From contig NZ_KI650982.1 of the NCBI RefSeq assembly GCF_000506985.1, positions 124,001 to 188,000 on the forward strand: a stretch of 64,000 nt of DNA, read 5' to 3'. Numbering within the stretch: the first letter of the stretch is position 1; each line of letters begins with the position of its first letter. Shown piece by piece: positions 7,335-54,468 of this stretch. Under the pieces are notes generated by a model that worked only from the letters and a program-made list of their open reading frames with translations, had not been told where the DNA came from and did no database searches. The position numbers and the translations under genes are program-made. The DNA comes from Advenella kashmirensis W13003 (GTDB lineage: Bacteria; Pseudomonadota; Gammaproteobacteria; Burkholderiales; Burkholderiaceae_B).

Positions 7335-7336
7335 AA

Positions 7337-13507: not shown

Positions 13508-13530
13508 CGCGTTCCATCGTCCAGTCCTTC

Positions 13531-13558
13531 GCCAGAAAATCGTAAAATAGCCGATTGA
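13531..13558 (+). repeat. Host mutS leader segment, matched at 51776-51803
   Basis: 28 bases that match 51776-51803 at 26 positions, the last 20 of them identical. The segment contains TAAAAT (13543-13548), a plausible -10 element. It lies 33-60 bases upstream of the displaced mutS start at 13591. In the right copy it lies at the same distance (within one base) from the functional mutS start. The left copy is the original host sequence because it adjoins the left host flank. Confidence 0.7.
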
Positions 13559-13590
13559 GTGACGAACTACCTTTGGACAGCCCACACCTG

Positions 13591-13653
13591 ATGCCCGCAG
13601 AACCCAACACACAAGCAGCTTCCGGCCACACCCCCATGATGCAGCAGTACTAA
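13591..13653 (+). pseudogene. mutS: Displaced 5' end of host mutS (20 codons)
   Basis: The host's original mutS start, cut off by prophage insertion. It begins MPAEPN, continues through [10 protein letters not shown], which is identical to residues 11-20 of the intact MutS at 51835, and then hits a TAA at 13651-13653 in phage DNA. At protein level 15 of 20 residues match the phage-supplied start. The upstream leader is in place, so a 20-residue peptide could still be made. Excision would rejoin this start to the mutS body. Confidence 0.85.
13619..13646 (+). repeat. attL core (28-bp direct repeat, inside mutS)
   Basis: These 28 bases are identical to 51863-51890 and sequence diverges on both sides. 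They encode part of the SGHTPMMQQ segment of MutS. They mark the left junction, with host mutS codons 1-10 to the left and phage DNA to the right. Crossover must fall within or beside this core. Confidence 0.88.
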
Positions 13654-21400: not shown

Positions 21401-22285
21401 CCGGTAGCTGCTGTTGCCGGTATAACTTGTAATTGTCTGGTAAACAAACGTCGATTCATCACTACCTGTTATGCTCCCAACATGGACCTCAATTACGCAT
21501 GCAACGCTGATAGGACAATTCAGCCATGTTGCTACAGTGGAACTTGACCGAGAGTAGTAAGTTCCAGCGGTCTTGATGTTATTTAAATCGGTATTGCTCG
21601 GCAGAGCCTGCGGAAGAACAAAAGGCTCGATAACTGCCACGCGCTCGTCAGTGTAGTTTTTCGCGGATTCAAGCGTAGTGGTAGCGGTCGCGGTCACATC
21701 AGTGATGGAAGCGTCTTTAAGCCACTCCCCCCAGACTCCGTTATACAGAGTCCGTCGGTAGCTGGAGTTGCCGGTGTAGCTGGTGATCGTCTGATAAACA
21801 AAAGACGTTTCATCGGTCCCTGATGGATCGCCGACCGTAACGTCAACGACGCACGCAACAGAGATCGGGCAATTCAACCAGGACGCCACAACCGAATTTG
21901 AATTTGAGTAATAGACTCCGGCTGTTTTTATATTGTTCAGATCGGTACTGCTTGGTAGCGCCTGAGGAATGACGAATCGACCAAACTTGTCAAGCGGATC
22001 ATCCGTTTTCACCCACGCGCCATCCCACAAATACAGACCTTTATCCGGACCTTCAGTGACGCGCGACATTGCATGAGCACCATCCGGAGTAATTGCCAGC
22101 AATTCGGGCAACGTCGTGACGCCGATCGATTGGCTCGATGTAACCTCCAGCATCGCGCCGTAAAGGGTCTTTTTGGTCAGGCCGTTAATATCCACAAACG
22201 TCTGATTTGTAGAGTTTGTGAATTCGTTCGTTTTCTGCAGGTTGATAGCAGCCCGGTCAAAGTCCGCAGGAGTTGGGATCGCCAT
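18473..22285 (-). CDS. Phage tail fibre with repeated pyocin-knob-like domains
   Basis: 1270-aa receptor-binding fibre. Four knob-like repeats (about residues 109-190, 222-312, 442-532, 624-715) each run from LNNIKTAG(V/T)YY through WLNCPISVAC to SYTGNSSYRR and end WxxWIKDA; the fourth is diverged. Between them are runs of a repeated SANQYTxxREAxIRxD unit likely to form a coiled coil. The C-terminal ~550 residues are unique and probably carry the receptor-binding tip. AAGAGA precedes the ATG. It lies downstream of the J-like gene, separated by a terminator. DNA identity between knobs is high enough to allow recombination. Confidence 0.85.
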   Translation of the reverse strand: MAIPTPADFDRAAINLQKTNEFTNSTNQTFVDINGLTKKTLYGAMLEVTSSQSIGVTTLPELLAITPDGAHAMSRVTEGPDKGLYLWDGAWVKTDDPLDKFGRFVIPQALPSSTDLNNIKTAGVYYSNSNSVVASWLNCPISVACVVDVTVGDPSGTDETSFVYQTITSYTGNSSYRRTLYNGVWGEWLKDASITDVTATATTTLESAKNYTDERVAVIEPFVLPQALPSNTDLNNIKTAGTYYSRSSSTVATWLNCPISVACVIEVHVGSITGSDESTFVYQTITSYTGNSSYRRALYNNNWSAWIKDATISDVTSSATATLSSAKQYTDEREAAIRDDMAAGEGDTLAAANQYTASREASIRTDYAVADAATLSSSKSYTDGKDSVVRTDMAAGDAATLGSANQYTATRETAIRSDTATADAANLNAAKQYTDEALGVIEPFVIPQALPTATDLNNIKTAGVYYSNSNATVATWLNCPISVACIVKVDVADPAGVEESSFVYQTVTSYTGNSSYRRTLYLDSWSIWIKDATTVDVSSGDSQAVISSNSYTDARETSIRDDFNAADAAALSSANSYTDAREIDIRADYTSADATTLADSKTYTDEKTSGIPAVDSRVTAIESFVIPKVILENADFNEYKTSGTYFTNVAAVANTLINSPVNQPGILKVNVGSSSGVGASSYVYQEYTPFVRTSANRSYKRTLYQDIWGEWIKQATEADIQEANAYADSADLAVKALGSLLRNQGAAFPNKIIARNSIVSGANTFLSDAILSIKVIGDRPGKYYGIRYFRNGSTAGIFSSNPYPDAWQIVEYDAENYETTSPTGLDVIKLLSNTTPVPTIPRSGVQTVVIESDVVAGLKFIITLDTSKLPAASAFSHIAMNGTGSSGYSWIIDPANYSYKPTEEYPTVAQVDAKDAATLVSANEYTDSKIPVPTAMRMPNNVFYTKDANGALTVAWKDTDKMYRYRFGINNFNELPNFYGADTAPLGDIETATWTQINNTLSDYLPPMVIEAVNDGDGQHDGNFFWFTGGNHGSTNSASGDKTARNVLYKLLVDGASLPDGAVSGYATSVTALISNELMARNTITVSRYVLRQNFKVDFVAGGARVHGKIVKLEDVNVYRDYGLQMVGSGFNDTVLILDSQIATRKAYSVNDTSGASSAYPNAWAMILKGANGQAALWMDSAVGTKNFASAEPRFRGSSTEGNSKVYAGVVVNGTTPTVLNDENPSYEFKGGYAIGSDITSATFDSVLSHSVAGESAHTMVVSGDDYITV

Positions 22286-42655: not shown

Positions 42656-43009
42656 ATGAATAAAAAACCGATCAACATCGTACTGGCTGAGAATTTGGCC
42701 CATTTCATGAGCCAAAGAAAATTAACCCAGAAAGGGTTGAGCGCATTATCGGACGTCGGTCAGACTACGATCAGCCTCTATTTGAATCCGGAACGGCGCC
42801 AAACCAGCAAATCAGGCAAAATGCCTTCCGCCAAATTAAGCGAAGTCGAAAGCTTAGCGCTCGCCTTGGAAGTGGATGTATGGGAATTGCTCCGGCCATT
42901 CACAGAGCAGGAACGGATCGCTTACAAGCATCTCGAAGCTGCATACAAAGCTATGTCTGATGGAAAACAGGAGGCCGACGATACAAAAAGCGGTAGCGAG
43001 GCAGCGTAA
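42656..43009 (+). CDS. CI-like prophage repressor
   Basis: 117 aa from the ATG at 42656 (MNKKPINIVLAENLAHFMSQ); upstream in-frame sequence passes through the operators. XRE-type HTH: QKGLSALSDVGQTTISLYLNPE, then a helical C-terminus. No peptidase (S24) domain is present, so it is not a LexA-like self-cleaving repressor; induction must work by another route, such as an antirepressor. No ribosome site is visible, as for lambda cI made from pRM. Confidence 0.78.
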   Translation: MNKKPINIVLAENLAHFMSQRKLTQKGLSALSDVGQTTISLYLNPERRQTSKSGKMPSAKLSEVESLALALEVDVWELLRPFTEQERIAYKHLEAAYKAMSDGKQEADDTKSGSEAA

Positions 43010-43115
43010 GAAAGGAAGGCACGTAGGGAATGTTATTTTTGATGTTTTCCCAAATTTTTGAGAACAAGTAACAGACTATGTAATATGTCTTCACTTATAA
43101 CCAAGGGGTTTGACG

Positions 43116-43529
43116 ATGAATGGCGCAGCTTTTAAAACGATAACGGCAGCGGCGTGCATATTCACAGCGCAATGGTCCTATGCCAGCGACATCCAATTAA
43201 AGGAGTTAACTAACGCAGCACAGCATTGGATATTTCTGACCGAGGCATGTCGTTTCACATATCCGGAACTGAACAAGCCAACCATATACCGCAAGATGGC
43301 ATTGGATATTGTGCGAATTACAGGAAAACCCTATGCAAACGCTCAAGATTTAGCAGATAAGCAATTTGCATTTTACGAGGAAACATTACACGCTTTGGAT
43401 CAAGAAAGATTACAAAAAATAAGACAAATTGACGATGGCTCCCAGGGGCATTTTATTTATTGCGAAACATCGGCCTTTGAAACCCAACAAAATTTCAGAA
43501 GCAAACTACGCAGCGCCTTTGAAAAGTAG
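43116..43529 (+). CDS. Exported protein of the immunity region
   Basis: 137 aa from the ATG at 43116 with AAGGGG 8 bases upstream. An N-terminal signal peptide (cleaved after SYAS near residue 22-24) leads to a helical periplasmic domain with two Cys (about 43 and 118). No family recognised. It lies between cI and the second operator pair, so it is probably co-expressed with the repressor in the lysogen. A periplasmic location suits superinfection exclusion, but this is inference. Confidence 0.6.
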   Translation: MNGAAFKTITAAACIFTAQWSYASDIQLKELTNAAQHWIFLTEACRFTYPELNKPTIYRKMALDIVRITGKPYANAQDLADKQFAFYEETLHALDQERLQKIRQIDDGSQGHFIYCETSAFETQQNFRSKLRSAFEK

Positions 43530-43547
43530 AAGAATTGGTCTCCTCAC

Positions 43548-43570
43548 CCGCCGCTAACGCGGTTTTTTTT
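43548..43570 (+). terminator. Terminator of the cI operon
   Basis: Short CCGC/GCGG stem (43551-43554 with 43559-43562) followed by eight Ts, right after the exported protein gene and before the second operator pair. Confidence 0.5.
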
Positions 43571-43586
43571 GGTCACTTCCTAAAAC

Positions 43587-43625
43587 TAGCAAAGTTTTGC
43601 TTGATTGACTAGCAATACTTTGCTA
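43587..43625. promoter_or_regulatory. Operator pair OL-like (two 16-bp sites)
   Basis: Sites at 43587-43602 and 43610-43625, of the same TAGCAA...TTGCTA type and the same 23-bp centre spacing as the pair beside cro. About 990 bp separates the two pairs, which flank cI and the exported protein gene. The second site covers the spacer and -10 of the early + promoter. Confidence 0.75.
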
Positions 43626-43629
43626 TATT
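43601..43629 (+). promoter_or_regulatory. Early rightward promoter
   Basis: TTGATT (43601-43606), 17-base spacer, TATATT (43624-43629). It overlaps both operators, so it is repressed in the lysogen. It points into a structured leader and then the early operon ending with int. Confidence 0.65.
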
Positions 43630-43637
43630 GTGAGCCA

Positions 43638-43674
43638 TGCATTCGAAATACAGAATGCACTGTTCTTTAAAAAC
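43638..43674 (+). promoter_or_regulatory. nut-like leader: boxB-like hairpin then boxA
   Basis: A 7-bp perfect stem with 8-base loop (43638-43644 with 43653-43659) is followed two bases later by TGTTCTTTAAAAAC (43661-43674), which matches the boxA consensus of rRNA and phage antitermination leaders. The order hairpin then boxA is that of rrn leaders rather than of lambda nut. No N-like gene is recognised. Confidence 0.55.
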
Positions 43675-43683
43675 TGATTGAAA

Positions 43684-44256
43684 TTAAGGTTTGGACGAAT
43701 TTTTCGCTGATTTTTGTTGCGCCTTATCGGCAATTTTCTTCTGCCTGAGCAATTGCCTGATTTGAATTTCACATTCTGGATATTCGCCGATGATGTGCGC
43801 AAAGATCTTTTCCGCGCGCGTTAGGCGGCGTTCTTCGACAAGTAGATGGTCGCTTTTATAACCTAACATGGACAGCGAGTTAAGCCGAGCGCAGTGGGCG
43901 AGCAGTTGAATTTCATCGGTATCTTGATGCGTTATTTTTCTGTACTCAGTCCAGATTTCCTCATCGGACAGTTCGCTAAATCGGTCATAGATATTCTTGT
44001 AGGCTTGAAATTGAAACTTTGCAAACGATGCCTTCTGGCCAGGAGCGTAAACAAACTGATATGCGGTGAGAATCGCCATAATCAAGCCTATCGCGATCGA
44101 CCAAATATTAAGCTGCGCAATGACTGCGCTGGAGAATAAGAGCAAAACAAAAGCAAATATTTTGTCTACTCTTCCATATAGTTTGTAGAGCGCCTTTTCG
44201 TAGCACATTGAATAAGCCAATGTAAATTTTTCTGTAGAAACGGCATCGTTTTGCAT
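43684..44256 (-). CDS. SLATT-like two-helix membrane protein
   Basis: 190 aa. Two close membrane helices (about 32-49 and 52-71) are preceded by YKLYGRVDKIF and followed by a helical cytoplasmic region, the layout of SLATT (SMODS/SLOG-associated two-TM) effectors, which are thought to form pores or sense ligands in bacterial conflict systems. C-terminus Lys-rich. It is the second gene of a two-gene - unit inside the + early operon, 9 bases after the small Pro-rich gene, with AAGGAA upstream. AT-richer than its neighbours. Family call is tentative. Confidence 0.5.
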   Translation of the reverse strand: MQNDAVSTEKFTLAYSMCYEKALYKLYGRVDKIFAFVLLLFSSAVIAQLNIWSIAIGLIMAILTAYQFVYAPGQKASFAKFQFQAYKNIYDRFSELSDEEIWTEYRKITHQDTDEIQLLAHCARLNSLSMLGYKSDHLLVEERRLTRAEKIFAHIIGEYPECEIQIRQLLRQKKIADKAQQKSAKNSSKP

Positions 44257-44265
44257 AGTATTTCC

Positions 44266-44409
44266 TTATTTATTCCCTCCTTTGTTCGGAGGAGGTGGAG
44301 GGGCTGGCATTTTCGGCGCGTGGTCTTTCTGCGAATAATTGGGTGGTGCTGGCTGCTTGATCGAATGGTTCGGTACCACGTTACCGCTGCTTTTGTTTTC
44401 GTTGCTCAT
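44266..44409 (-). CDS. Small proline-rich protein upstream of the SLATT-like gene
   Basis: 47 aa (MSNENKSSGNVVPNHS, then APPNYSQKDHAPKMPAPPPPP). GGTGAG precedes the ATG by 2-3 bases, close but usable. It ends 9 bases before the SLATT-like start, so they are probably an operon. Disordered, low-complexity; it might be a regulatory or linker partner of the membrane protein. Confidence 0.5.
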   Translation of the reverse strand: MSNENKSSGNVVPNHSIKQPAPPNYSQKDHAPKMPAPPPPPNKGGNK

Positions 44410-44431
44410 ATCTCACCTATTTTGTGATGGG

Positions 44432-44569
44432 TTGGTTTGGAAACTTGATCCTATCACGGAACGCGTCACCTGCGTAGTGGTGAGAAACCCGGGGCTGACC
44501 GGGACCTTCAAGAATCTTAATTTCAGTCAGTTTTTAAAGTCCGCCGAACAATTCCGGAAGGATGACTGA
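44432..44569 (+). CDS. Small phage protein with uncertain start
   Basis: Open frame up to TGA at 44567-44569. The part after 44432 (VWKLDPITERVTCVVVRNPG) reads like a real protein; upstream it overlaps the Pro-rich gene on the other strand. TTG at 44432 is the best start, giving 45 aa. First gene of the + early operon if real. Four bases before the next ATG. Confidence 0.4.
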   Translation: MVWKLDPITERVTCVVVRNPGLTGTFKNLNFSQFLKSAEQFRKDD

Positions 44570-44572
44570 CGA

Positions 44573-44803
44573 ATGAATGCAATCCACTCCCTCGCTTTTT
44601 ATCTGGCCGCCGGTATATTCACCTGGGCCTTCGTTGAAATTTCAGATCGAAGAAAGCTGAATAAGCCAGGACTCTCCTACAGCGAGTACCTGCGCCTGCA
44701 GGAAGAACGCATCCCCGTCTGGGGTTGGATCGGCGGCCTGGTCTTTTTCCTGATCCTGTTCGTCCTGGTCCCCTTCGTGGGGTTTGCGGCAGATCTGACA
44801 TGA
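44573..44803 (+). CDS. Small two-helix membrane protein
   Basis: 76 aa with two membrane helices (about 6-22 and 50-71) around a charged loop (DRRKLNKPGLSYSEYLRLQEER). Its stop overlaps the next start as ATGA. Early gene; possibly a superinfection-exclusion or host-takeover factor. Not recognised. Confidence 0.6.
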   Translation: MNAIHSLAFYLAAGIFTWAFVEISDRRKLNKPGLSYSEYLRLQEERIPVWGWIGGLVFFLILFVLVPFVGFAADLT

Positions 44804-44991
44804 AACCCAGCATCGCTGACCTTCAAGAGGCCGCCCGTCGATCCAGATTGACGATCCCCCTTGAGGTCGCGATGCAATCCCCTGCCCTTGCCTATTGCTT
44901 AAACAAAACGGCGCTGATCATTGCGAAGCGCCGAACATCCACCCCGCCTAAGCCCGATTTCAAGAGACTGGCCGCCGGCGACATTGACTGA
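44800..44991 (+). CDS. Small phage early protein
   Basis: 63 aa (MKPSIADLQEAARRSRLTIP, ending RLAAGDID), soluble and basic. It starts on the overlapping ATGA of the preceding membrane protein and ends 7 bases before the first DUF1566-like gene. No family recognised. Confidence 0.55.
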   Translation: MKPSIADLQEAARRSRLTIPLEVAMQSPALAYCLNKTALIIAKRRTSTPPKPDFKRLAAGDID

Positions 44992-44998
44992 GAGAACC

Positions 44999-45619
44999 AT
45001 GGAAACCATCCAAATCGAAGAAGTTCAGAACACCGACGTCCCTGCTACCCCTGGTATAGCTTTCGCCGGCGGGTTCTATTTCGGCCAAATCAACATCAAC
45101 GGCGTCGCCCACGCACTGGTTGTATCTCCCAAAGAGGCCGGCGAGTTCGAAGGCGTCTGGGGCGAGTATGGCCAGGCGGTTGACGCTCGCAGTATGGTCG
45201 ACGGCTTAACAAACACACTGGCCATGGCCGCAGCTGAATCAGAACTTGCTCAGCAGGCATTGGCTCTGACCATCAACGACAAATCAGACTGGTATATCCC
45301 TGCACGCGACGAGCTGGAGGTGCTGTATCGCAACCTGAAACCAACCGCCCGGCTCAATGGTTGCTGGTGGCGTGATGGCGAGAACATGAATGCCGTGCCG
45401 CCCACAGCTGCGTACACCAAAGACAATCCAGCCCAGACCGCCGCAACAGCCTTCCAAGATGACGGCGAGCAAGCAATGGCTGACGATTGCTATTGGACTT
45501 CGACGCAGGTCAGCGCCGACAGCGCTGCTATTCAGCTTTTCTACGATGGGTATCAGGGCTACTACGGCAAGGGTATTGAGTTCCGAGTCCGCGTTGTCCG
45601 CAGATTAAAAATTTTGTAA
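44999..45619 (+). CDS. DUF1566-like C-type-lectin-fold protein A with DGR-type variable C-terminus
   Basis: 206 aa from the ATG at 44999; a longer frame to 44921 lies inside the preceding gene and is rejected. It starts METIQIEEVQNTDVP. The fold blocks WYIPARDELEVLYRNL, WWRDGENMNA and YWTSTQVSA are typical of DUF1566/Lcl-type domains, which have a C-type-lectin/FGE-like core. The last ~35 codons form the variable segment, ending FRVRVVRRLKIL. Its nearest paralogue (48,462) is clearly diverged in the body but identical outside the variable codons at the C-terminus. No signal peptide. Ligand unknown. Confidence 0.75.
   Translation: METIQIEEVQNTDVPATPGIAFAGGFYFGQININGVAHALVVSPKEAGEFEGVWGEYGQAVDARSMVDGLTNTLAMAAAESELAQQALALTINDKSDWYIPARDELEVLYRNLKPTARLNGCWWRDGENMNAVPPTAAYTKDNPAQTAATAFQDDGEQAMADDCYWTSTQVSADSAAIQLFYDGYQGYYGKGIEFRVRVVRRLKIL
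45503..45607 (+). repeat. Variable region VR-A (105 bp)
   Basis: 35 codons from ACGCAGGTC to the shared CGCAGATTA. Compared with VR-B and VR-C it differs only at first and second codon positions; all third bases match. The 3' thirty bases, where mutagenesis would initiate, are identical in all three. Identity with copy B continues past the stop to about 45630. Confidence 0.75.
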
Positions 45620-45661
45620 TTCAGTCATTTCCAGCATCCAGTCCATAAAGGAATTCCAAAC

Positions 45662-46003
45662 ATGGCCCAAACCCCATTTGACGAAACCCTGCGCAAGATC
45701 CGTCGCGGCGTCCTGATCAACGAACTCACAGAGCAGCTGCAGGACATTGTGAAAGCGGTTGAAGACACCGGCAAAAGCGGCGAAATCGTCATCAAGCTGA
45801 CCATAAAGAAATTTTCGCGCATGAATGCCATCGACATTACCGACAAGGTGACGGTCAAGGTGCCGCAGGATCAGCCAGAGTCCACGATGTTGTTTGCTAC
45901 GGCAGAGGGCAACCTCGTCACCGAGGATCCGCGCCAACAGAAATTGCCACTGAGCGCGGTCAGTATTCCCGGCTCAGCGGATGTCATCGCCCTCAAAAAA
46001 TAA
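45662..46003 (+). CDS. Phage early protein of unknown function
   Basis: 113 aa (MAQTPFDETLRKIRRGVLIN), soluble, with IKLTIKKFSRMNAIDITDKVTVKVP suggesting a beta-rich domain. It lies 42 bases after DUF1566-like gene A and 10 before the DUF2303 gene, which it often accompanies in phages (recollection, not checked). No catalytic motif. Confidence 0.6.
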   Translation: MAQTPFDETLRKIRRGVLINELTEQLQDIVKAVEDTGKSGEIVIKLTIKKFSRMNAIDITDKVTVKVPQDQPESTMLFATAEGNLVTEDPRQQKLPLSAVSIPGSADVIALKK

Positions 46004-46013
46004 GGAGCTTACC

Positions 46014-46892
46014 TTGAATCCAACCACAGATACACCCAACCTGGCCGAAACAGTCGCGCGTTTGACGCCAAAGCCTTTCACCCTCGTCACCGGGCAGCGT
46101 GGAACGCTGTTTGCCGTCCCGGATGGATATTCCATCGACACCGATGCGAAACTGGAAAAGCTCGAACCCGCACCGTACCGCAAAACCGGTTGTTTAAAGT
46201 TTTCGACGGCAGAATCATTTGCCGAATATGTCAACGCGCATAAAACGCCGGAGACGCGACTGTATGCAATGGTTAATCACGAAAGCACAACATGTCCGCT
46301 GCGTATTGTTGCCATTTTCAACGAACACCAGCCCATCGCCCAGAGCACCGATAGCATTGCTGGCTGGCGTGACTTCCGAGCCGAATTCATTCCCGCTTCA
46401 TCCTATGAGTGGCGTACCTGGAATAAAAAGAACAAAGAGGGATTCAGTCAATTTGACTTTGCTGTCTTTCTTGAGGACAACAATAAAGACATCCATAAAC
46501 CCGACGATGCAGCGAGCTGGCCATCCGGGATTGACATGCTGTCCATGGCTCGGGAGCTGGAAATCAACTCTGACAAAAGCTTCAAGTCGGCGGTTCGTAC
46601 GCAATCGGGCGGCATGGCCCTCACCTTCGTCGATAACGACGATGCGGCCACAGCAGAGCGCATGGATGCCTTCAATAAGTTTGCCATTGGCATTCCCGTT
46701 TTCTGGCAGGACCAAGGCTATGTGATCACTGCCCGCCTACGCTACCGTCAGAAAGCAGGCGCACTAATGTTTTTCTACGAACTGGTCCGCCCTGATCTGA
46801 CTGTGGATGATGCTGTCACCAAACTGCTTGCCAAAGTGGAAGAACAGGTATCCATAAAAACGCTGTTCGTCCAGAACGGGACCGAGGTTTAA
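46014..46892 (+). CDS. DUF2303 (YfdQ family) phage protein
   Basis: 292 aa from TTG at 46014, chosen because AAGGAG lies 7 bases upstream; an ATG at 45981 would overlap the upstream gene. Contains the DUF2303 blocks RLYAMVNHEST, WRDFRAEF, EWRTWN and FAVFLEDN. The family occurs in prophage early regions, including E. coli YfdQ; the molecular role is unknown, perhaps recombination-related. Confidence 0.8.
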   Translation: MNPTTDTPNLAETVARLTPKPFTLVTGQRGTLFAVPDGYSIDTDAKLEKLEPAPYRKTGCLKFSTAESFAEYVNAHKTPETRLYAMVNHESTTCPLRIVAIFNEHQPIAQSTDSIAGWRDFRAEFIPASSYEWRTWNKKNKEGFSQFDFAVFLEDNNKDIHKPDDAASWPSGIDMLSMARELEINSDKSFKSAVRTQSGGMALTFVDNDDAATAERMDAFNKFAIGIPVFWQDQGYVITARLRYRQKAGALMFFYELVRPDLTVDDAVTKLLAKVEEQVSIKTLFVQNGTEV

Positions 46893-46901
46893 GGATCGGC
46901 C

Positions 46902-47306
46902 ATGAGAAAACGGTGCCCACGCAAACCTCGTGCAATCAGGATACCCGTTACGGGCTTGCGCGGCACCGTGGCCCTTGATGCGCGCCTTGCCTATGAAGTG
47001 ATCAAGGCCACGCCCGATATCTACGCTTTCAATCGCTTGGTGGACTCTTTCAACATGATGTCCGTCGCCATGCTCAATGACAAGCGCTTCGAACTCGAAC
47101 TGAACATCTATGGCGGCGCAACCCGCGCCCTGGACGAAGCCCGGACGTTGATCGCTGCCGGCGTCCAACTGCCCGCGCGGCTCCTGGAACCTATCCGCAT
47201 TGGCGTGAATGTGATTGACGAAGTGTTGCCCCGCCTGGACCTGGCTTATCTCGCCAATTCTGAATTGACTGCGGTCAATACAGTTAAAGACATGATGAGG
47301 AACTGA
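46902..47306 (+). CDS. Phage early protein of unknown function
   Basis: 134 aa, basic N-terminus (MRKRCPRKPRAIRIP), then helical. Contains FNRLVDSFNMMSVAMLNDKRFELELN. No recognised domain. It starts 9 bases after the DUF2303 gene and ends 1 base before the next ATG, so it is part of the same operon. Confidence 0.6.
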   Translation: MRKRCPRKPRAIRIPVTGLRGTVALDARLAYEVIKATPDIYAFNRLVDSFNMMSVAMLNDKRFELELNIYGGATRALDEARTLIAAGVQLPARLLEPIRIGVNVIDEVLPRLDLAYLANSELTAVNTVKDMMRN

Positions 47307-47307
47307 A

Positions 47308-47694
47308 ATGGATAACCCAGCAAATCTGATCCCGCGCCACGGGCTCGGTCTGAGCCAAGCAGAGGATGCCATGAAGGAAGATGCCGATCTGATTCCCCAA
47401 AAACGTATCACCGGTGACCTGGCGTACGGGGTTCCGATGTTGAAAATCGGTGACCTCTCACAATCTATTCCAGAAACGCAAGTAGGAGCACTGACTAACA
47501 AACGCTCTTTGCGATTAATCCTTGATCAAAAATCGGACGGCACCTTCGCATACAAGGTCCAAGACAATCATACGTGGCTGGTGCTCTATGGCGGAGAGAG
47601 GAATCAAGAGCACCTAGTTTGGTTGGCAATCCCGCCCGGAGATCGTGGGTTTATCGACCAAGTTCATTTGTACAGCGAGGGAAAACTGAAATGA
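47308..47694 (+). CDS. Phage early protein of unknown function
   Basis: 128 aa. N-terminal part (MDNPANLIPRHGLGLSQAED) precedes a mixed beta region (TWLVLYGGERNQEHLVWLAIPP). No family recognised. Its last codons overlap the next small membrane gene as ATGA-type coupling. Confidence 0.55.
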   Translation: MDNPANLIPRHGLGLSQAEDAMKEDADLIPQKRITGDLAYGVPMLKIGDLSQSIPETQVGALTNKRSLRLILDQKSDGTFAYKVQDNHTWLVLYGGERNQEHLVWLAIPPGDRGFIDQVHLYSEGKLK

Positions 47695-47846
47695 AAATTG
47701 CCCTGTACACCCTGCTGGCTTTCGCAGCATGCATTCTTTTAGCGCTTTGGAGCCGGCAGGCGGTGCTCTATCTTGCCGCCGTCGTGGCATTTGTCGCATT
47801 AATAATGTACGGGTTGAGCGGCCGCGAATATGAGGGGTACCTATGA
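47691..47846 (+). CDS. Small membrane protein
   Basis: 51 aa, mostly two membrane helices (about 4-20 and 24-43). Starts within the stop region of the preceding gene and its stop overlaps the next start. The short coupled series 47691-48225 is typical of phage early regions. Function unknown. Confidence 0.55.
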   Translation: MKIALYTLLAFAACILLALWSRQAVLYLAAVVAFVALIMYGLSGREYEGYL

Positions 47847-48049
47847 TTCCCGTCCAAACAATCGAGCAGTTGGTGCTCAGTCATATTCGCCACCAATTGC
47901 CGCGCCATGAGCTTGACACGCAGATCAAAGACCGCAAGCGCCTCAATCACCTTCTGGACGATATTGGTCACGATTGCGGCGTCGTTATCTATGGCCCTAT
48001 TAATACAGGCGAGGACATAGTGCGGTTCATCCGGGAGCGTCGGAGATGA
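47843..48049 (+). CDS. Small phage early protein
   Basis: 68 aa (MIPVQTIEQLVLSHIRHQLP, ending FIRERRR), soluble, helical. Coupled on both sides by overlapping stop and start codons. Not recognised. Confidence 0.55.
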   Translation: MIPVQTIEQLVLSHIRHQLPRHELDTQIKDRKRLNHLLDDIGHDCGVVIYGPINTGEDIVRFIRERRR

Positions 48050-48225
48050 ATAACTACGCGCCTTTGCTCTGGTTAGCATGCGTGCTGGCATCTGCCGCAC
48101 TCATTCCTCTATTCGAGCTAATTGCTCGTTTCTGCGCCGACCGGCTGTCGGCATTTCCATGTAGGAGATTCTATGTGCGACGGAGCGGATTGCCCCGAGA
48201 ACGACATGTTCATGCCAAAACGTAA
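48046..48225 (+). CDS. Small single-helix membrane protein
   Basis: 59 aa, too short for usual ORF cut-offs. One membrane helix (about 6-28) and a basic C-terminus. GGAG precedes the ATG, which overlaps the preceding stop as ATGA. Its 3' end overlaps a 19-codon frame with a strong ribosome site. Confidence 0.5.
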   Translation: MNNYAPLLWLACVLASAALIPLFELIARFCADRLSAFPCRRFYVRRSGLPRERHVHAKT

Positions 48226-48232
48226 ACGGTAA
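48173..48232 (+). CDS. 19-residue peptide with a CxxxxC motif
   Basis: MCDGADCPENDMFMPKRKR, preceded by TAGGAG 5-6 bases before the ATG, one of the best ribosome sites in the operon. It overlaps the 3' end of the 59-aa gene in another frame. Could be a tiny phage protein or a leader peptide. The spacer after it (48233-48461) shows a small GC hairpin and no gene. Confidence 0.35.
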   Translation: MCDGADCPENDMFMPKRKR

Positions 48233-48461
48233 TTGAACACAACGCCTGCATAGCTGGGATATAAGCATCACCCAGGCTCAGGACCCGCGCTGGCCGGTTG
48301 CCAGCACCTTGATTGCAGTCGCTTTTCGCCCGGCGTTATTCACCGGGTAACGTTAAAAGTAAGTCCGGCTTTTCCACAGTGCAACGAATTAAAACGGAAG
48401 GCGACTGCAATGAAGGTCAGTAGCAACTTTTTCCCCTGCAGCAACGAACATTGAGAGAACC

Positions 48462-49085
48462 ATGGAAACCATTCAAATCGAAGAAGTACGCAAAGCAGAA
48501 GTCCCTGCTACCCCTGGCACAGCTTTCGCCGGCGGGTTCTATTTCGGCCAGATCAATATTGACGGCCAGCTGTATGCGCTGGTCGTCGCCCCGAAAGAGT
48601 CAGGCCAGTTTATCGGCAAATGGAGCGAGCATTACGACAAAATTGAAAGCGCAAATAGCGTGTCCGATGGCTTCAAGAACACCCTGGCCATGGCGGACGC
48701 CGGATCAGACATTGCAAAGCGTGCACTGGGCTTAACAATCAACGGGCAAGTGCCCTGGTACATCCCCGCTCGTGACGAGCTGGAGCAAGTCTACCGTCAC
48801 CTGAAGCCCACCACCCGGGAGAACTATTGCTCATGGCGCGATGGCGAGAACGCGAATGCCGTGCCGGCAACCGATGTCTACAGGGAAGATCTGCCCGAAC
48901 AGACTGCTGCGACTGAGTTCCAAGAAGAAGGAGCCGAAGCCATGGACGCTGGCTGGCATTGGTCATCCACGCAGGTCAGCGCCACCGGCGCTGCTATTCA
49001 GTTTTTCAACGATGGGAGTCAGAACGGCAACGGCAAGGATATTGAGTTCCGAGTCCGCGTTGTCCGCAGATTAAAAATTTTGTAA
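48462..49085 (+). CDS. DUF1566-like C-type-lectin-fold protein B with DGR-type variable C-terminus
   Basis: 207 aa (METIQIEEVRKAEVPATPG), the close paralogue of A. Body identity is moderate (for example LGLTINGQVPWYIPARDELE against ALTINDKSDWYIPARDELE), while the C-terminus outside the variable codons is identical to A, down to DNA and beyond the stop. Same leader GAGAGAACC before the ATG. Variable codons here include ACC, GGC, TTT, AAC, AAC, GGC and AAC, several still AAC as expected for an adenine-rich template. Confidence 0.75.
   Translation: METIQIEEVRKAEVPATPGTAFAGGFYFGQINIDGQLYALVVAPKESGQFIGKWSEHYDKIESANSVSDGFKNTLAMADAGSDIAKRALGLTINGQVPWYIPARDELEQVYRHLKPTTRENYCSWRDGENANAVPATDVYREDLPEQTAATEFQEEGAEAMDAGWHWSSTQVSATGAAIQFFNDGSQNGNGKDIEFRVRVVRRLKIL
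48969..49073 (+). repeat. Variable region VR-B (105 bp)
   Basis: Aligned without gaps to VR-A and VR-C. Substitutions confined to the first two bases of twelve codons; no synonymous change. Flanking 3' block identical to the others. Confidence 0.75.
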
Positions 49086-49126
49086 TTCAGTCATTTTCAA
49101 CGTCGCGCATTCATAGGAATACCAAA

Positions 49127-49720
49127 ATGAGCCAAACAGTCACACTCGCCCTGGAAAACGCCAAGGTTGATATCCCGCTGCGATCACTGCTTGAGCAGAT
49201 CGGCAGCACAATTAAGGTAACGATGCATGTGGATTCGGGCACTCCGCCCGTCCCCAAAATAGGCGAATACTGGCACGGCCAGGGTGGCATTTGTGCCGGC
49301 ATCATGCGTGGCCATGGCGGCAAACCTGATTACCACCTGATCCTTGCTGTCGATTCCAGCGCCAAATTTGACGATATTAAATGGGGCGGTTATGGCACGA
49401 AGATCGACGGCGCAGACGATCAATGGGATGGTCAGGCCAATACACAGGCCATCTTACGCGCAAATGGCACTTTCCCTGCCGCTGAGCTGGCGACAACGGT
49501 GCGTTGCGATGGCCATACAGATTTTTACTTGCCGTCCAAGCGCGAATCCGCATTGCTGTATGCCAACCTTCCAGATCAGTTCGAAAGCGGCTGGCACTGG
49601 ACTTCCACGCAGGTCAGCGCCTACAGCGCTGCTATTCAGAATTTCCTCAATGGGAGTCAGAGCAACTACGTCAAGGATGATGAGTTCCGAGTCCGCGTTG
49701 TCCGCAGATTAACCATTTAG
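49127..49720 (+). CDS. DUF1566-like C-type-lectin-fold protein C with DGR-type variable C-terminus
   Basis: 197 aa with an unrelated N-terminal half (MSQTVTLALENAKVDIPL) followed by a DUF1566-like core (GEYWHGQGGICAGIMRG, DFYLPSKRESALLYANL, WHWTSTQVSA). The final block FRVRVVRRLTI is the same as in A and B although the rest of the protein is not. AGGA precedes the ATG. It lies immediately upstream of the Avd-like gene, the order target - avd being typical of DGR cassettes. Confidence 0.75.
   Translation: MSQTVTLALENAKVDIPLRSLLEQIGSTIKVTMHVDSGTPPVPKIGEYWHGQGGICAGIMRGHGGKPDYHLILAVDSSAKFDDIKWGGYGTKIDGADDQWDGQANTQAILRANGTFPAAELATTVRCDGHTDFYLPSKRESALLYANLPDQFESGWHWTSTQVSAYSAAIQNFLNGSQSNYVKDDEFRVRVVRRLTI
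49607..49711 (+). repeat. Variable region VR-C (105 bp)
   Basis: Same length, no gap. Contributes the adenine state at several sites (AAT at codon 12, AAT at 15, AAC at 20). Downstream identity ends right after CAGATTA, whereas VR-A and VR-B share more. Confidence 0.75.
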
Positions 49721-49733
49721 TCCTTTATCTATT

Positions 49734-49982
49734 ATGGCACTCCACACTGAACTTCCGATACATAAGGAGGCATACAACCTCCTGGACACCCTGCTGCAGT
49801 TGGCAAAACACCTGCCACGCGACATGAAGGTACTAATTGGCACCAAATGGCGCGACGAAGGCATGTATGTCCTTGAAATGGTCTTCAAGGCCAACGGCAG
49901 CATGGACAAAATCAGATTACAGATTGAATCGCTGCAGGGTCGACTGGATGAGTTTATGCAGACAGAACTGGAGGAAATATGA
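49734..49982 (+). CDS. Avd-like DGR accessory protein, shortened
   Basis: 82 aa. The N-terminus MALHTELPIHKEAYNLLDTL, the PRDMKVLIG block and FKANGSMDK match the four-helix-bundle Avd proteins that bind DGR template RNA and reverse transcriptase. Typical members are about 115-125 aa and end in further helices; this one departs after residue ~58 and stops early, overlapping the next gene as ATGA. It follows target gene C at 14 bases. Probably an Avd remnant left by loss of downstream TR and RT, or a divergent short form. Call based on remembered family pattern. Confidence 0.6.
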   Translation: MALHTELPIHKEAYNLLDTLLQLAKHLPRDMKVLIGTKWRDEGMYVLEMVFKANGSMDKIRLQIESLQGRLDEFMQTELEEI

Positions 49983-50521
49983 AGGAACGCCCGATACTCT
50001 TTTCGGCGCCTATGGTAAGAGCTTTGCTGGCCGGCAACAAAACGCAAACACGTCGGATCCTCAAAAGCCAGGGATCTGCGACAAAAGCGACGCTCGGGTT
50101 GGCGAATTGCCATCTTGGCCAGCCTGGCGACCGCCTTTGGGTACGAGAGACGTTCGCTCATATCTATCGTGGGAATGACAAGCCAGAAAGCAGACGTTCT
50201 GATGACGTCGCTTACAAAGCAGACGGATTCTCAGTTGACCCATACGTGTATGGGCCATGGAAACCAAGCATCCATATACCGCGCTGGGCCAGCCGCATCA
50301 ATCTGGTAATCAAATCGGTGCGCGTCGAGCGCCTCCAGGATATCAGCGAGGCCGATGCACTCGCCGAGGGCATCACCTACGGCCAGTTGCCTGATAATCC
50401 GCATGACCAGCAGCGAGCCCGAACCTGGTATCGAGGCCTCTGGGAGCAGATTAATGGCGCCGGATCCTGGGAGGCGAACCCATTCGTCTGGGTGATTGAG
50501 TTTGAAAGGATTGAGAAATGA
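49979..50521 (+). CDS. Phage protein with ASCH-like (PUA-related) domain
   Basis: 180 aa. N-terminus MKERPILFSAPMVRALLAGNKTQTRR is characteristic of a phage family related to ASCH/PUA RNA-binding folds. GDRLWVRETFAHIYRG and ASRINLVIKSVRVERLQDISEADALAEG support it. Role unknown; possibly RNA or modified-nucleotide binding. Coupled to the Avd-like gene by ATGA. A 19-codon frame follows at 50518-50577. Confidence 0.65.
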   Translation: MKERPILFSAPMVRALLAGNKTQTRRILKSQGSATKATLGLANCHLGQPGDRLWVRETFAHIYRGNDKPESRRSDDVAYKADGFSVDPYVYGPWKPSIHIPRWASRINLVIKSVRVERLQDISEADALAEGITYGQLPDNPHDQQRARTWYRGLWEQINGAGSWEANPFVWVIEFERIEK

Positions 50522-50602
50522 CCGACGCCATACGCCGAATGCTGGCAATCACTAAGAAAGAATGGAACCTGCCTTGAGCGATCTTTTTGTTGGAGCAATG
50601 AA

Positions 50603-50809
50603 ATGAATATCCTAACCCTATCAGACGATGAAATCGAGGAAATTACCCAGCGCAAACACCGATCTGCACAGGTGCGGGTACTTAATCAGCTTAAAATCCC
50701 CTGCGCGTTCAGGCCTGACCGATCTATTGTCGTATTGCGATCGGCAGTTATAAAAACCCTCGGAAACTCAATTCCATCCAGTACTGGCCGGCCAAAATTA
50801 CGACTATGA
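50603..50809 (+). CDS. DUF4224 protein
   Basis: 68 aa with the DUF4224 pattern LSDDEIEEITQRKHRSAQVRVLNQLKIPCAFRPDRS. These small proteins are found directly before phage integrases, overlapping them as ATGA as here. A role as excisionase-like factor is plausible by position, and no other Xis candidate is visible. GGAG lies upstream. Confidence 0.75.
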   Translation: MNILTLSDDEIEEITQRKHRSAQVRVLNQLKIPCAFRPDRSIVVLRSAVIKTLGNSIPSSTGRPKLRL

Positions 50810-51795
50810 GCAGACCACGAAAAAAAGACAAGCACTTACCCCCGTGTGTCCATGAGAAGCACGGCGCTTTCTACTATGTCAAAAAGGGCAAATGGAATCC
50901 AATTGGCAAAACCCTCGCCGAAGCGCTGGAGAATTATGCCAGACACGTCGATCAACCCCGCGGCGGCATGCCTGCTCTGATTGAAAAGGTCCTGACCTAC
51001 ATCAAGCCGTCCCTATCTGACAACACCTACGACCAGTATCGACAGGCAGCAACCCGACTGAATAAGATTCTCGCTGAGTTTGCCCCCGATCAGGTCATGA
51101 CAAAGCATGTGGCGGAAATCAAAGTCAGCCTATCTGACACACCGGCAATGGCAAACCGGATCCTCAGTTTTTTGAAAGTTGTGTTTCAGCATGCCGTGGA
51201 GTGGCAGATGGTGGATTCAAACCCCTGTATTGGGATCAAACGCCACAAAGAAGGCCGGCGGGAACGATACATCACGGATGAGGAATATATCGCCATTTAT
51301 GACCACGCCAATATCCGCCTCAAATCCATTATGGAGATTCTATACCTTACCGGCCAACGGATCAGTGATGTATTGTCGATCAGATGTGACGATATATCCG
51401 AATCAGGGATATCGTTCACCCAGAAGAAAACCGGCGCCAAATTGACGTGCGGCATGACGCCGGAGCTACAAGACGCCATACAGCGCGCCAAAGCCCTCCA
51501 TGGCAGGAAAGAGTATCCCTTTCTGTTTGTGAGCCGATATGGGCGGGAATTGACGTATGGGGGCCTCCGTGACACGTGGAGGGAAGCAGTCAAGTCTGCG
51601 GGCGTTGTGGATGCCAATATCCATGACCTGCGGGCAAAATCGCTCACGGACGCTAAAAAACAGGGGATTGACGCGACCGCCCTGGCGGGACACACAACCG
51701 CGCGCCAGACAGAGCGCTACATTCGAAACCGTCAATCTCCGGTTGTAAGCATACCGAAATTAAGCCCAGCACTGCGCCGGAAGATCGTAAAATAG
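50806..51795 (+). CDS. int: Phage tyrosine integrase
   Basis: 329 aa. Catalytic residues visible: Arg185 (TGQRISD), His273-x-x-Arg276 (HDLRAK), His296 (GHTTARQ) and nucleophile Tyr305 (TERYI). The N-terminal arm-binding part is short and basic (MSRPRKKDKH). It mediates recombination at the mutS core. Its stop is 39 bases before mutS, and its 3' end is itself the copy of the host mutS leader (51776-51803), so int coding sequence and mutS control sequence coincide. Same direction as mutS. Confidence 0.93.
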   Translation: MSRPRKKDKHLPPCVHEKHGAFYYVKKGKWNPIGKTLAEALENYARHVDQPRGGMPALIEKVLTYIKPSLSDNTYDQYRQAATRLNKILAEFAPDQVMTKHVAEIKVSLSDTPAMANRILSFLKVVFQHAVEWQMVDSNPCIGIKRHKEGRRERYITDEEYIAIYDHANIRLKSIMEILYLTGQRISDVLSIRCDDISESGISFTQKKTGAKLTCGMTPELQDAIQRAKALHGRKEYPFLFVSRYGRELTYGGLRDTWREAVKSAGVVDANIHDLRAKSLTDAKKQGIDATALAGHTTARQTERYIRNRQSPVVSIPKLSPALRRKIVK

Positions 51796-51803
51796 CCGAT
51801 TGA
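51776..51803 (+). promoter_or_regulatory. Phage copy of the mutS leader (within the int 3' end)
   Basis: Matches 13531-13558 at 26 of 28 bases with TAAAAT at 51788-51793 preserved, 32-59 bases upstream of the active mutS ATG. It doubles as the last codons of int (RRKIVK-stop) and the bases after it. Probably keeps a mutS promoter element in place after integration; no clear -35 is seen. Confidence 0.55.
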
Positions 51804-51814
51804 AAACGGATTTA

Positions 51815-51831
51815 TTTTAGACAGTCTAAAA
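51815..51831. repeat. Perfect 17-bp palindrome between int and mutS
   Basis: TTTTAGAC-A-GTCTAAAA, 3 bases before the mutS ATG. It contains the motif found twice at the left phage end and has no counterpart in the displaced host leader. Candidate integrase/Xis arm site or operator. Bound protein here would cover the mutS translation start region. Confidence 0.55.
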
Positions 51832-51834
51832 CCA

Positions 51835-54468
51835 ATGGTCGAAGAACCCAATAAACATGCGCCTTCCGGCCACACCCCCATGATGCAGCAATATCTGCGC
51901 CTTAAGCTGGAGGCGGGATCGGTGTTGCTGTTTTATCGCATGGGCGATTTCTATGAAATGTTCTATGACGACGCCGAAAAAGCGGCCAGGCTGCTCAATC
52001 TGACACTGACCAAGCGCGGCAACTCCAATGGCCAGCCTATTCCTATGGCGGGCGTGCCTGTTCATGCCATGGAAACTTATCTGGCGCGCCTGGTGGCACT
52101 GGGAGAGTCTGTCGCCATCTGCGAGCAGATCGGTGACCCGGCCACCAGTAAAGGGCCGGTCGAGCGAAAAATCGTGCGTATTGTTACGCCAGGAACGCTA
52201 ACCGACGAGACGCTGCTGCCTTCCAAACTGGATCGCCCTCTTCTGTCGGTGTTCCTGCCTGCCAAAGGCAAATCGCCCAAATATGGCCTGGCCTGGCTCA
52301 ATCTGGCCAGCGGCCAGTTCAAGGTCACGCAATGCGATCAGGAGGCGCTGGAATCGGAAATCCATCGCATCGCCCCGGCAGAAATTGTCCATGCCGACTC
52401 CTTCGCACTTCAGACCAAATTTACCGGCTCAATCAGTCACACCGCCGACTGGCACTACGACATGAACGATGCCGACGCACTGCTGTGCCGGCATTTTAAA
52501 ATCGATTCGCTCGCCAGCTTCGGCATGACCGATATGCCGGCGGCCATTTGTGCTGCCGGTGCCCTGCTGCGTTATGTCGAGCGCACGCAGACCCAATCGC
52601 TGTCGCATGTCCAGCACATCATGGTCGATCATGCTCTGGATTATCTGGTGCTCGATCCGGTCACCCGAAAGAATCTGGAGATCACCGAGACAATCAGCGG
52701 TGAAACACGCCCCACCCTTTTTTCGCTGCTGGATCACTGCGAGACGCCGATGGGCAGCCGCATGTTGCGACACTGGCTGCATCATCCGCTGCGCTCGAAC
52801 AGCCAGATCCGCGCCCGCCAGGAAGCGGTCGCGGCCATGCTGGCTGGCCGCCCGGACGGACCGGTACACCCCCATATCGCCCTGGACAACCTGCGCACCG
52901 AATTGAACGCCTTTCCAGACCTGGAACGTATCGCCACGCGGATTGCGCTGCGCTCGGTCAGGCCACGCGAGCTGGCCAGCCTGCGCGATGCCTTGCAGCG
53001 GCTACCCCAATTGCAGGTTCTGCTGCGTAACCAGCACGCCAATGCGGCACGCCTGGACGCGCTGAACGAAGAGCTGGGTCTGGATACGCAATTGCACTCG
53101 AGCTTGCAGGCCGCCATTGCGCTTGAACCGGCTGCCATGATCCGTGACGGCGGTGTGATCGCCGAAGGTTTCGATGCCGATCTGGACGAGCTGCGCACCC
53201 TGGCCAGCGATAGCGGTGCCTTTCTTGTCGAACTCGAAGCGCGGGAGCGCGAACGCACCGGCATTGCCAATCTGCGGGTTGAATTTAACCGGGTCCATGG
53301 ATTTTTTATCGAGGTCTCCAAGGGGCAGGTCGACAAAGTACCCGCAGACTACCGGCGCCGACAGACGCTGAAAAATGTCGAACGCTATATCACACCTGAA
53401 TTGAAAGGCTTCGAAGACAAAGTATTGTCTGCACGCGACCGGTCGCTCTCACGCGAGAAATGGCTGTACGACCAGTTGCTCGACACGCTGCACGCCTGGG
53501 TGACGCCGTTGCAGCGTTGCGCGCAGGCCATCGCCGAACTGGACGTTTACCTGGCACTGGCCAGCCATGCGCGCGATAACGAATGGATCGCGCCGCAACT
53601 GGCCGACTCCCCGATTATCGATATCGAAGCAGGCCGACATCCTGTGGTCGAACACACGATTGAGCAATTTACTCCCAACAGTTGCCAGATGGATTCCGAT
53701 CGGCGCATGCTGCTGATCACGGGTCCGAACATGGGTGGTAAGTCCACCTATATGCGGCAGACGGCCCTGATCGTGCTGCTGGCGCGCATGGGCAGCTTTG
53801 TGCCGGCCAGCGGCGCAACCATCGGGGTGATTGATCGCATTTTCACCCGCATTGGCGCCGCCGATGATCTGGCCGGCGGTCAGTCCACCTTCATGATGGA
53901 AATGACCGAAGCGGCAACCATTCTGGCTGCCAGCACCCCCAATAGCCTGGTCCTGATGGACGAAATTGGTCGCGGCACCTCTACCTATGACGGCCTGTCA
54001 CTGGCCTGGGCCATTGCGTGCCGGCTGCTGGACCACAATCATGCGCTCACGCTCTTTGCCACACACTACTTTGAAATTACCCGCCTGCCGGATCTGAACC
54101 CGGCGGCGCTCAATGTACATTTGGCTGCGACCGAAGCAGCCAGCGGCCTTGTCTTTTTACATGAAGTTCAAAGCGGCCCGGCCAGCCGCAGCTACGGGAT
54201 TCAGGTCGCGCAGCGCGCGGGCCTGCCTGTTGCCGTTATTCGCCAGGCCAAGCGGGAGCTGGATCGCCTGGAAAGCCAGGCCGGCGATATTTCACAACTC
54301 AATCTGTTCAGCGCCACACACGAAAGCGATGATCAACACAGCGATGATGCGCTTGAGCTGACCGCCTTCCGCGAGGCGCTGCAGGGGTTCGACCCCGACA
54401 ACATGAGTCCGCGCGAAGCGCTGGACGCCCTGTACAAACTGCATAATCGATTTGGCGGAGAATCATGA
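51835..54468 (+). CDS. mutS: DNA mismatch repair protein MutS (phage-supplied N-terminus)
   Basis: 877 aa, full length. The mismatch-contacting Phe-x-Glu is at 39-41 (MGDFYEMF), the ATPase Walker A is [15 protein letters not shown] and Walker [17 protein letters not shown]. Residues 1-10 ([10 protein letters not shown]) and the leader come from the prophage; the host version (MPAEPN...) is stranded at 13591. The join at residues 11-19 is the attR core. No ribosome site is obvious in either version. It is overlapped by the next gene (4 bases). MutS should be functional because the altered residues precede the mismatch-binding domain core. Confidence 0.95.
51863..51890 (+). repeat. attR core (28-bp direct repeat, codons 10-19 of mutS)
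   Basis: Identical to 13619-13646. To the right is host mutS, to the left phage DNA that mimics the mutS 5' end. After the core the two copies differ at once (GTAC against ATAT). Confidence 0.88.

What the first reader, a model, noticed from the sequence alone, without database searches (positions are those of the whole stretch)
45503..49711. Three variable regions with an adenine-directed, third-base-preserving pattern: DGR target genes
The C-terminal 105 bp of three DUF1566-like genes (45503-45607, 48969-49073, 49607-49711) align without gaps. I counted 19 variable positions in 12 codons. None is a third codon position and no synonymous change is present. At 18 of the 19 positions at least one copy has A, and most variable codons look like products of AAC or AAT. 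The bodies of the proteins are much more diverged (C is mostly unrelated), yet the last 30 bp are identical. Ordinary duplication or selection would leave synonymous differences; adenine mutagenesis copied from a shared template explains all of it. Established: C-type-lectin-fold proteins are the classical DGR targets.
Basis: partly seen in the sequence, partly recalled or inferred. Interest (0 to 1): 0.9.

Follow-up and report, generated by a model that had tools for sequence, protein, structure and literature searches.

The report
Orphaned DGR target genes in prophage
A dormant virus in this bacterium carries three copies of a lectin-like gene whose ends bear the marks of a known targeted-mutation machine, but the machine itself appears to have been cut out, leaving varied and probably frozen genes behind.

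Summary
The cause is a diversity-generating retroelement (DGR). A sister phage contig, L099, carries RT, Avd, RT-15 RNA and a template repeat with A at 17 of the 19 variable positions (p=1.4e-8), matching 77 of 83 invariant ones.

But the window's assembly shows no template and no DGR reverse transcriptase; its one RT is a Drt8 defence RT. Against L099, about 2.4 kb is missing right after target C. Window ORF 49734-49982 is the scar: the Avd N-terminus fused in frame to another ORF's tail. So these are orphaned DGR targets.

Among 177 de-duplicated loci that could be judged, 23 (this one included) lack a full RT; HNH-like genes lie beside the targets in 11 of 23 versus 3 of 154 (weaker but holding under stricter grouping). 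Orphan variable regions look no more decayed than others: loss is recent, or repair comes in trans. New variant of a known kind.

The parts
44999..45619 (+). Target gene A (206 aa, Lcl_C/DUF1566, C-type-lectin-like)
   Evidence: Pfam Lcl_C (run on the longer ORF 44921-45616), PHROG 4245, alignment A1
45503..45607 (+). Variable region A
   Evidence: 14 mismatches at template A and 5 others to the L099 template over 102 bp
48462..49085 (+). Target gene B (207 aa), paralogue of A (65% identical)
   Evidence: structure model pLDDT 85.6, best Foldseek PDB hits 4eps and Lcl C-terminal domain 8q4e, E 0.0015 and 0.002
48969..49073 (+). Variable region B
   Evidence: 12 mismatches at template A and 6 others to the L099 template
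49127..49720 (+). Target gene C (197 aa), shorter paralogue
   Evidence: 67% identical to the second target of L099 over the part aligned
49607..49711 (+). Variable region C
   Evidence: 8 mismatches at template A and 6 others to the L099 template
49734..49982 (+). Deletion scar: chimeric 82-aa ORF = about 54 N-terminal residues of Avd fused in frame to 28 C-terminal residues of an unrelated ORF (L099 8509-8883)
   Evidence: PHROG 3206 'Avd protein of DGR' E=1.9e-8, hit spanning residues 1-61; Pfam bAvd only E 0.12; junction alignment to L099
49889..49909 (+). Deletion junction (approximate): both flanks of L099 (about 6361-6376 and 8795-8810) align here; short imperfect homology, not an exact repeat
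49979..50521 (+). Phage gene right of the lost core (PHROG 874), colinear with L099 8880-9541
50806..51795 (+). Tyrosine integrase of the prophage

Best explanation
The three genes are targets of a phage DGR. An RT copied a template RNA, misreading A, and the cDNA replaced the 3' end of each target, so the three lectin-like proteins vary at about 12 codons on one scaffold. Afterwards a deletion of about 2.4 kb removed the 3' part of avd, the RT-15 RNA, the template repeat and the RT, leaving an in-frame avd fusion as scar. In this strain the three variants are now fixed in cis. Shown here: the VR pattern, the matching template in a sister phage, no template and no DGR-type RT found in the assembly, and the junction. 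Inferred: that a DGR acted in this very lineage before the deletion (rather than the targets arriving already varied), that the deletion used short homology, and that the targets are binding proteins.
For: VR statistics. L099 template: A at 17 of 19 variable positions versus 16 of 83 invariant ones, Fisher p=1.4e-8; the L043 and L118 templates have A at 18 of 19 (ten templates compared there, range 15-18 of 19). Colinearity of L099 and window on both sides of the gap. Avd fusion. L099's extra stretch holds the avd 3' end, RT-15 (6541-6720), template (6717-6818) and RT (6830-7930). Own genome: only the three VRs match; one RT in total, which is Drt8 at 535 bits with motif IPVGSAASR where the DGR RTs here have IGNLSSQ or similar; RT-15 not in the window.
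Against: The template of this phage itself is lost, so its A content is read from relatives; at codon 14 the L099 template has TCT, not an A codon (positions 40-41), and 4 of its 6 mismatches at invariant sites are not at A. The genome-wide RT-15 search was negative but no control genome rang, so it says little. The deletion is seen in one assembly; the identical IMG/VR contig L017 is probably the same strain and no independent witness. Homology at the junction is imperfect. No hairpin was found 3' of the VRs. L099 is itself flawed: its second target stops early within the VR and its avd has ACG where the window has ATG.
Confidence: 0.9

Rival explanations
1. The orphan targets are still diversified, in trans, by the DGR of another phage that shares the cell from time to time; the phage borrows a neighbour's machine.
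For: VRs of RT-less loci look as clean as others: 12 third-position differences in 292 over 18 VR pairs, versus 235 in 3507 over 214 pairs of RT-bearing loci (only pairs with 5-35 differences counted). Aurca01 and Medea1 share an identical HNH gene in place of the core (0 of 492 differences) and nearly identical target-1 bodies (2 of 491), yet their VRs differ at 18 of 121 and 18 of 120. In Pseudomonas sp. Irchel 3E20 one VR of an RT-less locus (L055) matches the template of a second, intact DGR locus (L063) at all non-A sites. Trans action within one genome is reported for Thiohalocapsa (PMC10907252, passages).
Against: No matching template in the own genome or in 9 other genomes of the genus. 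The Aurca01/Medea1 pattern also fits HNH homing into phages whose VRs already differed: flanks there are mosaic (target-2 body 29 of 488, post-HNH 10 of 147). In Irchel 3E20 the two loci share ancestry (94.5% over 1336 bp), and L055's second VR has 2 non-A mismatches even to its best template, that of L079.
Confidence: 0.15
2. An intact DGR with matching template exists in this strain but is missing from the 12-contig assembly.
For: The assembly is a draft; an unassembled plasmid or phage cannot be excluded.
Against: Completeness given as 100; the local locus is contiguous and bears a deletion scar where the core lies in relatives.
Confidence: 0.06
3. Ordinary duplication with diversifying selection or gene conversion, no retroelement.
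For: Selection can favour non-synonymous change and conversion can homogenise flanks.
Against: 0 of 19 at third positions against 82 of 154 in A-B bodies; variable sites coincide with A of outside templates; the sister phage carries the machine.
Confidence: 0.02
4. The deletion is an assembly artefact.
For: VR and template are repeats, which can confuse assembly.
Against: The junction lies outside the repeats, in avd and in a small ORF, and gives an open fusion overlapping the next gene by ATGA.
Confidence: 0.05

Closest known systems
Phage/prophage DGRs of the Avd type with RT-15 RNA (RF03018), e.g. Pseudomonas phage Cruim01 and contig L099
   Same: Paralogous Lcl_C/DUF1566 targets, A-directed variable regions, Avd; Cruim01 and L099 have RT-15, template and RT directly downstream
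   Different: Window lacks RT, template, RT-15 and the Avd C-terminus
Degenerate DGR loci diversified in trans (Thiohalocapsa PB-PSB1, PMC10907252) and distal targets beside a mutated RT (Pseudogulbenkiania, PMC3521204)
   Same: Targets persist after local RT loss (passages read)
   Different: There a further DGR is in the genome; here none is found
Bordetella phage BPP-1 DGR
   Same: A-directed mutagenic homing into the 3' end of a C-type-lectin-fold gene (established knowledge, also in passages of PMC6642488)
   Different: BPP-1's target is a tail protein; here targets lie in the early region near the integrase, away from the tail genes
Aurca01/Medea1 type loci
   Same: Related targets without RT
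   Different: Core replaced by a NUMOD4-HNH gene with an RT C-terminal relic, whereas the window has a plain deletion

Membership tests
DGR | Variable repeats at the 3' end of target genes, differences confined to template A | tested here: met
   the template used is that of a relative
DGR | Template repeat in the same element | tested here: not met
   only the three VRs in the whole assembly
DGR | DGR-type reverse transcriptase (IGxxxSQ motif; motif recalled) | tested here: not met
   one RT, Drt8, motif IPVGSAASR
DGR | Accessory protein Avd | tested here: not met
   only the N-terminal part remains, fused to a foreign tail
DGR | C-type-lectin or similar scaffold of the target | tested here: met
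   Lcl_C (A above the cut-off, B and C below it); Foldseek hits 4eps and 8q4e, E 0.0015 and 0.002, none at or below 0.001; profile hit to 8q4e E 0.0024
DGR | Conserved 3' end of VR (IMH; term recalled) | tested here: met
   last 31 bp identical in three copies, close to the L099 template
DGR | Hairpin 3' of VR (recalled) | tested here: inconclusive
   3 window and 3 relative stretches folded, none clearly better than shuffles
DGR | Active diversification | not testable with these tools
   needs reads from a culture

The most novel reading that the evidence does not exclude
Phages of this group repeatedly lose the DGR core, by deletion or by replacement with HNH homing endonucleases, and live on as 'DGR satellites': their target genes keep being rewritten in trans by the machines of co-resident or co-infecting phages, so that RT and template behave as a shared, swappable module.
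Probability: 0.18. Interest if true: 0.8.

Novelty: new variant of a known kind. Interest (0 to 1): 0.5.

Why it matters
DGR finders that start from the RT or the template (from general knowledge of such programs) would not report this locus, yet the VR signature alone was readable. Orphaned targets offer a natural test of whether DGR variation pays continuously or only until a good variant is found. The association of HNH genes with lost DGR cores suggests that one selfish element displaces another. Two paper searches bear on whether that is in print: 'diversity-generating' with 'HNH endonuclease' and 'template repeat' gave no paper; 'diversity-generating retroelement' with 'homing endonuclease' gave eight, seen as a listing only, so prior report is not excluded.

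Tried and rejected
Looked for the template by DNA similarity, by pattern with up to 3 mismatches and with the L099 template: none. Looked for RT-15 remnants in window 43000-52000 with a permissive threshold: none. Considered the genome's RT as a DGR RT: it is Drt8. First read the 82-aa ORF as a naturally short Avd; the L099 comparison showed a fusion. Considered Aurca01/Medea1 as proof of trans action; withdrew this because HNH homing explains it too. Several RT-less loci show a single target (e.g. L062, L074, L089, L104), so their RT may lie elsewhere in the phage: the whole records of 14 RT-less loci were searched for RVT_1 and 5 had matches. Of 13 RT loci (L004, L176-L187) checked with the DGR RT profile, only L180 (Irchel 3E20, taken to be the RT of L063) was DGR-like; ten had other motifs, L185 and L187 gave no hit at E<=1e-5; two further RT places in L096's genome were not looked at. 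Fold matches to PDB are weak (best E 0.0015) and were taken only as support for the Lcl_C assignment. Search for the window's VR pattern in viral contigs found only the own strain's contig and L099.
Full report
What is there. Three genes of the Lcl_C/DUF1566 kind (A 44999-45619, B 48462-49085, C 49127-49720) lie in the early region of a prophage, on the + strand, close to its integrase (50806-51795), while terminase, portal, major head and tail genes lie on the - strand at about 18.5-36.7 kb. Direct repeats at 13521-13649 and 51766-51893, overlapping the start of a mutS-like gene (named by recall, not by a search), suggest the prophage ends. The bodies of the same genes differ with many third-position changes (A-B 82 of 154; B-C 89 of 205; A-C 76 of 197).

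Why it is a DGR. Seven of the nine first relatives scanned (L018-L022, L025, L027) have a nearby repeat whose mismatches to the target ends fall on A, with 0 or 1 exception in the best 90-bp stretches; two (Aurca01 L024, Medea1 L026) have none, and the window itself gave only one weak pair, VR A against VR B. In the wider set 138 de-duplicated loci gave a template; over 297 template-VR pairs (6 misaligned pairs dropped) there were 4135 mismatches at template A and 157 elsewhere; 192 pairs had none elsewhere, the two worst 8 and 14. The contig L099 (IMGVR_UViG_3300012806_000010) is the closest relative: its template has A at 17 of the 19 positions that vary in the window against 16 of 83 that do not (Fisher p=1.4e-8) and matches the window at 77 of 83 invariant positions. 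The single variable position without A in any window copy is A there (codon GAC). Positions 40-41 are not A there.

What is missing. The window's assembly (4.85 Mb, 12 contigs, completeness 100) has no fourth copy. PF00078 finds one RT, assigned to Drt8 (535 bits, next best 158). RT-15 was not found in the genome (no control genome rang, so weak) nor in the window. L099 and the window are colinear to the left (L099 5239-6376 with 48756-49909) and to the right (L099 8795-8959 with 49894-50058) of a gap; L099 6361-8794, about 2.4 kb, has no counterpart. That stretch holds the avd 3' part, RT-15 (6541-6720), the template (6717-6818), the RT (6830-7930, with IGNLSSQ) and two small ORFs. The junction gives an open 82-aa fusion: the PHROG 'Avd protein of DGR' hit spans residues 1-61 (E=1.9e-8), and the last 28 codons align to the end of an L099 ORF (17 unchanged, 3 synonymous, 8 non-synonymous). 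In the Avd part 16 of 53 codons differ synonymously and 13 non-synonymously.

How general. 235 had a target by my criteria; L020, which has an RT, fell out. Crude de-duplication left 197, merging Medea1 with Aurca01. 154 carry a full RT; 20 end too soon to tell; 23, the window included, have at least 2.5 kb downstream and no full RT. HNH-like genes, by two profiles built from six of these very loci, lie within the target region or 3.5 kb beyond in 11 of the 23 and in 3 of the 154 (Fisher p=4.1e-9). Because the profiles were made from RT-less loci, this contrast leans towards them. With stricter grouping by shared 60-mers, a mixed group counted as RT-bearing, it is 10 of 22 versus 4 of 157, 10 of 22 versus 4 of 147, or 8 of 20 versus 6 of 131 (p=7e-8, 1e-7, 4e-5). 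Pfam HNH_3 confirms the L024, L026, L055, L150 and L158 genes; L058 and L100 had no Pfam match and are called HNH-like by eye only; L091, L210, L240, L244 and L283 rest on the profiles alone. In 9 of the 11, and in 2 of the loci that end too soon, a C-terminal RT relic follows; one RT-less locus, L167, has a relic without HNH; the remaining 11, among them the window, have neither.

Is the variation still alive? VR pairs in RT-less loci show 12 third-position differences in 292 (18 pairs) against 235 in 3507 (214 pairs) in RT-bearing loci (only pairs with 5-35 differences counted). So orphan VRs are not visibly decayed: the losses are recent, or repair comes in trans. In the window the 86 invariant positions are identical in all three copies, which bounds the age only loosely. 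Aurca01 and Medea1 would prove trans diversification if their shared HNH replacement were inherited once, but HNH homing is an equal explanation. The L055/L063 pair in one Pseudomonas genome is the best place for a test. For Pseudomonas capeferrum (L058, RT relic, both VRs with 0 non-A mismatches to the L079 template) two of the three RTs found in its genome have group-II-like motifs and the third gave no hit to the DGR RT profile, so it resembles the window.

Function. The model of B (mean pLDDT 85.6, low around residues 111-150) resembles a Bacteroides fimbrial protein and the Lcl C-terminal domain (Foldseek E 0.0015 and 0.002, nothing at or below 0.001), consistent with a ligand-binding C-type-lectin fold. 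Place in the genome speaks against a tail fibre; what the proteins bind is unknown, and a surface or secreted role in the lysogen is my inference.

Literature. Degenerate DGR loci diversified in trans are described in Thiohalocapsa (PMC10907252, passages), RT loss beside distal targets in Pseudogulbenkiania (PMC3521204, passages); DUF1566 is cited as the most common target domain (PMC6642488, passages). Roux 2021 (PMC8144416) was seen as abstract and two passages. Passages only were also seen of PMC10743442, PMC3091744 and PMC8143477. No paper in the library held 'diversity-generating', 'HNH endonuclease' and 'template repeat' together; eight held 'diversity-generating retroelement' and 'homing endonuclease', seen as a listing only.

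Verdict. The finding beyond it is that the element is beheaded: targets remain, machine gone. This is a new variant of a known kind, of moderate interest by itself and of higher interest if trans rewriting can be shown.

Noticed in passing
L024 8629-9117, L026 8641-9132, L055 1508-1981, L058 10882-11319, L100 2401-2844, L150 4290-4736, L158 5741-6226, L091 10538-10945, L210 7700-8152, L240 6284-6733, L244 7870-8310, L283 8316-8732: HNH or HNH-like genes of several types sit where all or part of avd/template/RT belongs in RT-less relatives, mostly followed by the last 30-100 codons of the RT.
   Followed up: partly
L055 and L063 (Pseudomonas sp. Irchel 3E20): Two related loci in one genome, one with an intact DGR and one whose core is replaced by HNH; one orphan VR matches the intact template at all non-A sites.
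   Followed up: partly
L004 (G000 contig C4, around 11210-11647): The genome's only RT is a Drt8 defence RT, with a 334-aa ORF directly upstream that was not identified.
   Followed up: partly
window 13521-13649 and 51766-51893: Direct repeats around an apparent mutS start and the integrase 3' end: probable attachment sites, with a copy of the integrase end at the left.
   Followed up: no
window 20724-21814: Internal repeats of 71-189 nt, 71-80% alike, in the 1270-aa tail-like gene on the - strand.
   Followed up: no
RF03018 (RT-15) in L020, L021, L022, L025, L063, L099: The Rfam RT-15 RNA ends within a few bases of the start of the DGR template in these loci, so it is probably the 5' part of the DGR template RNA.
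   Followed up: partly
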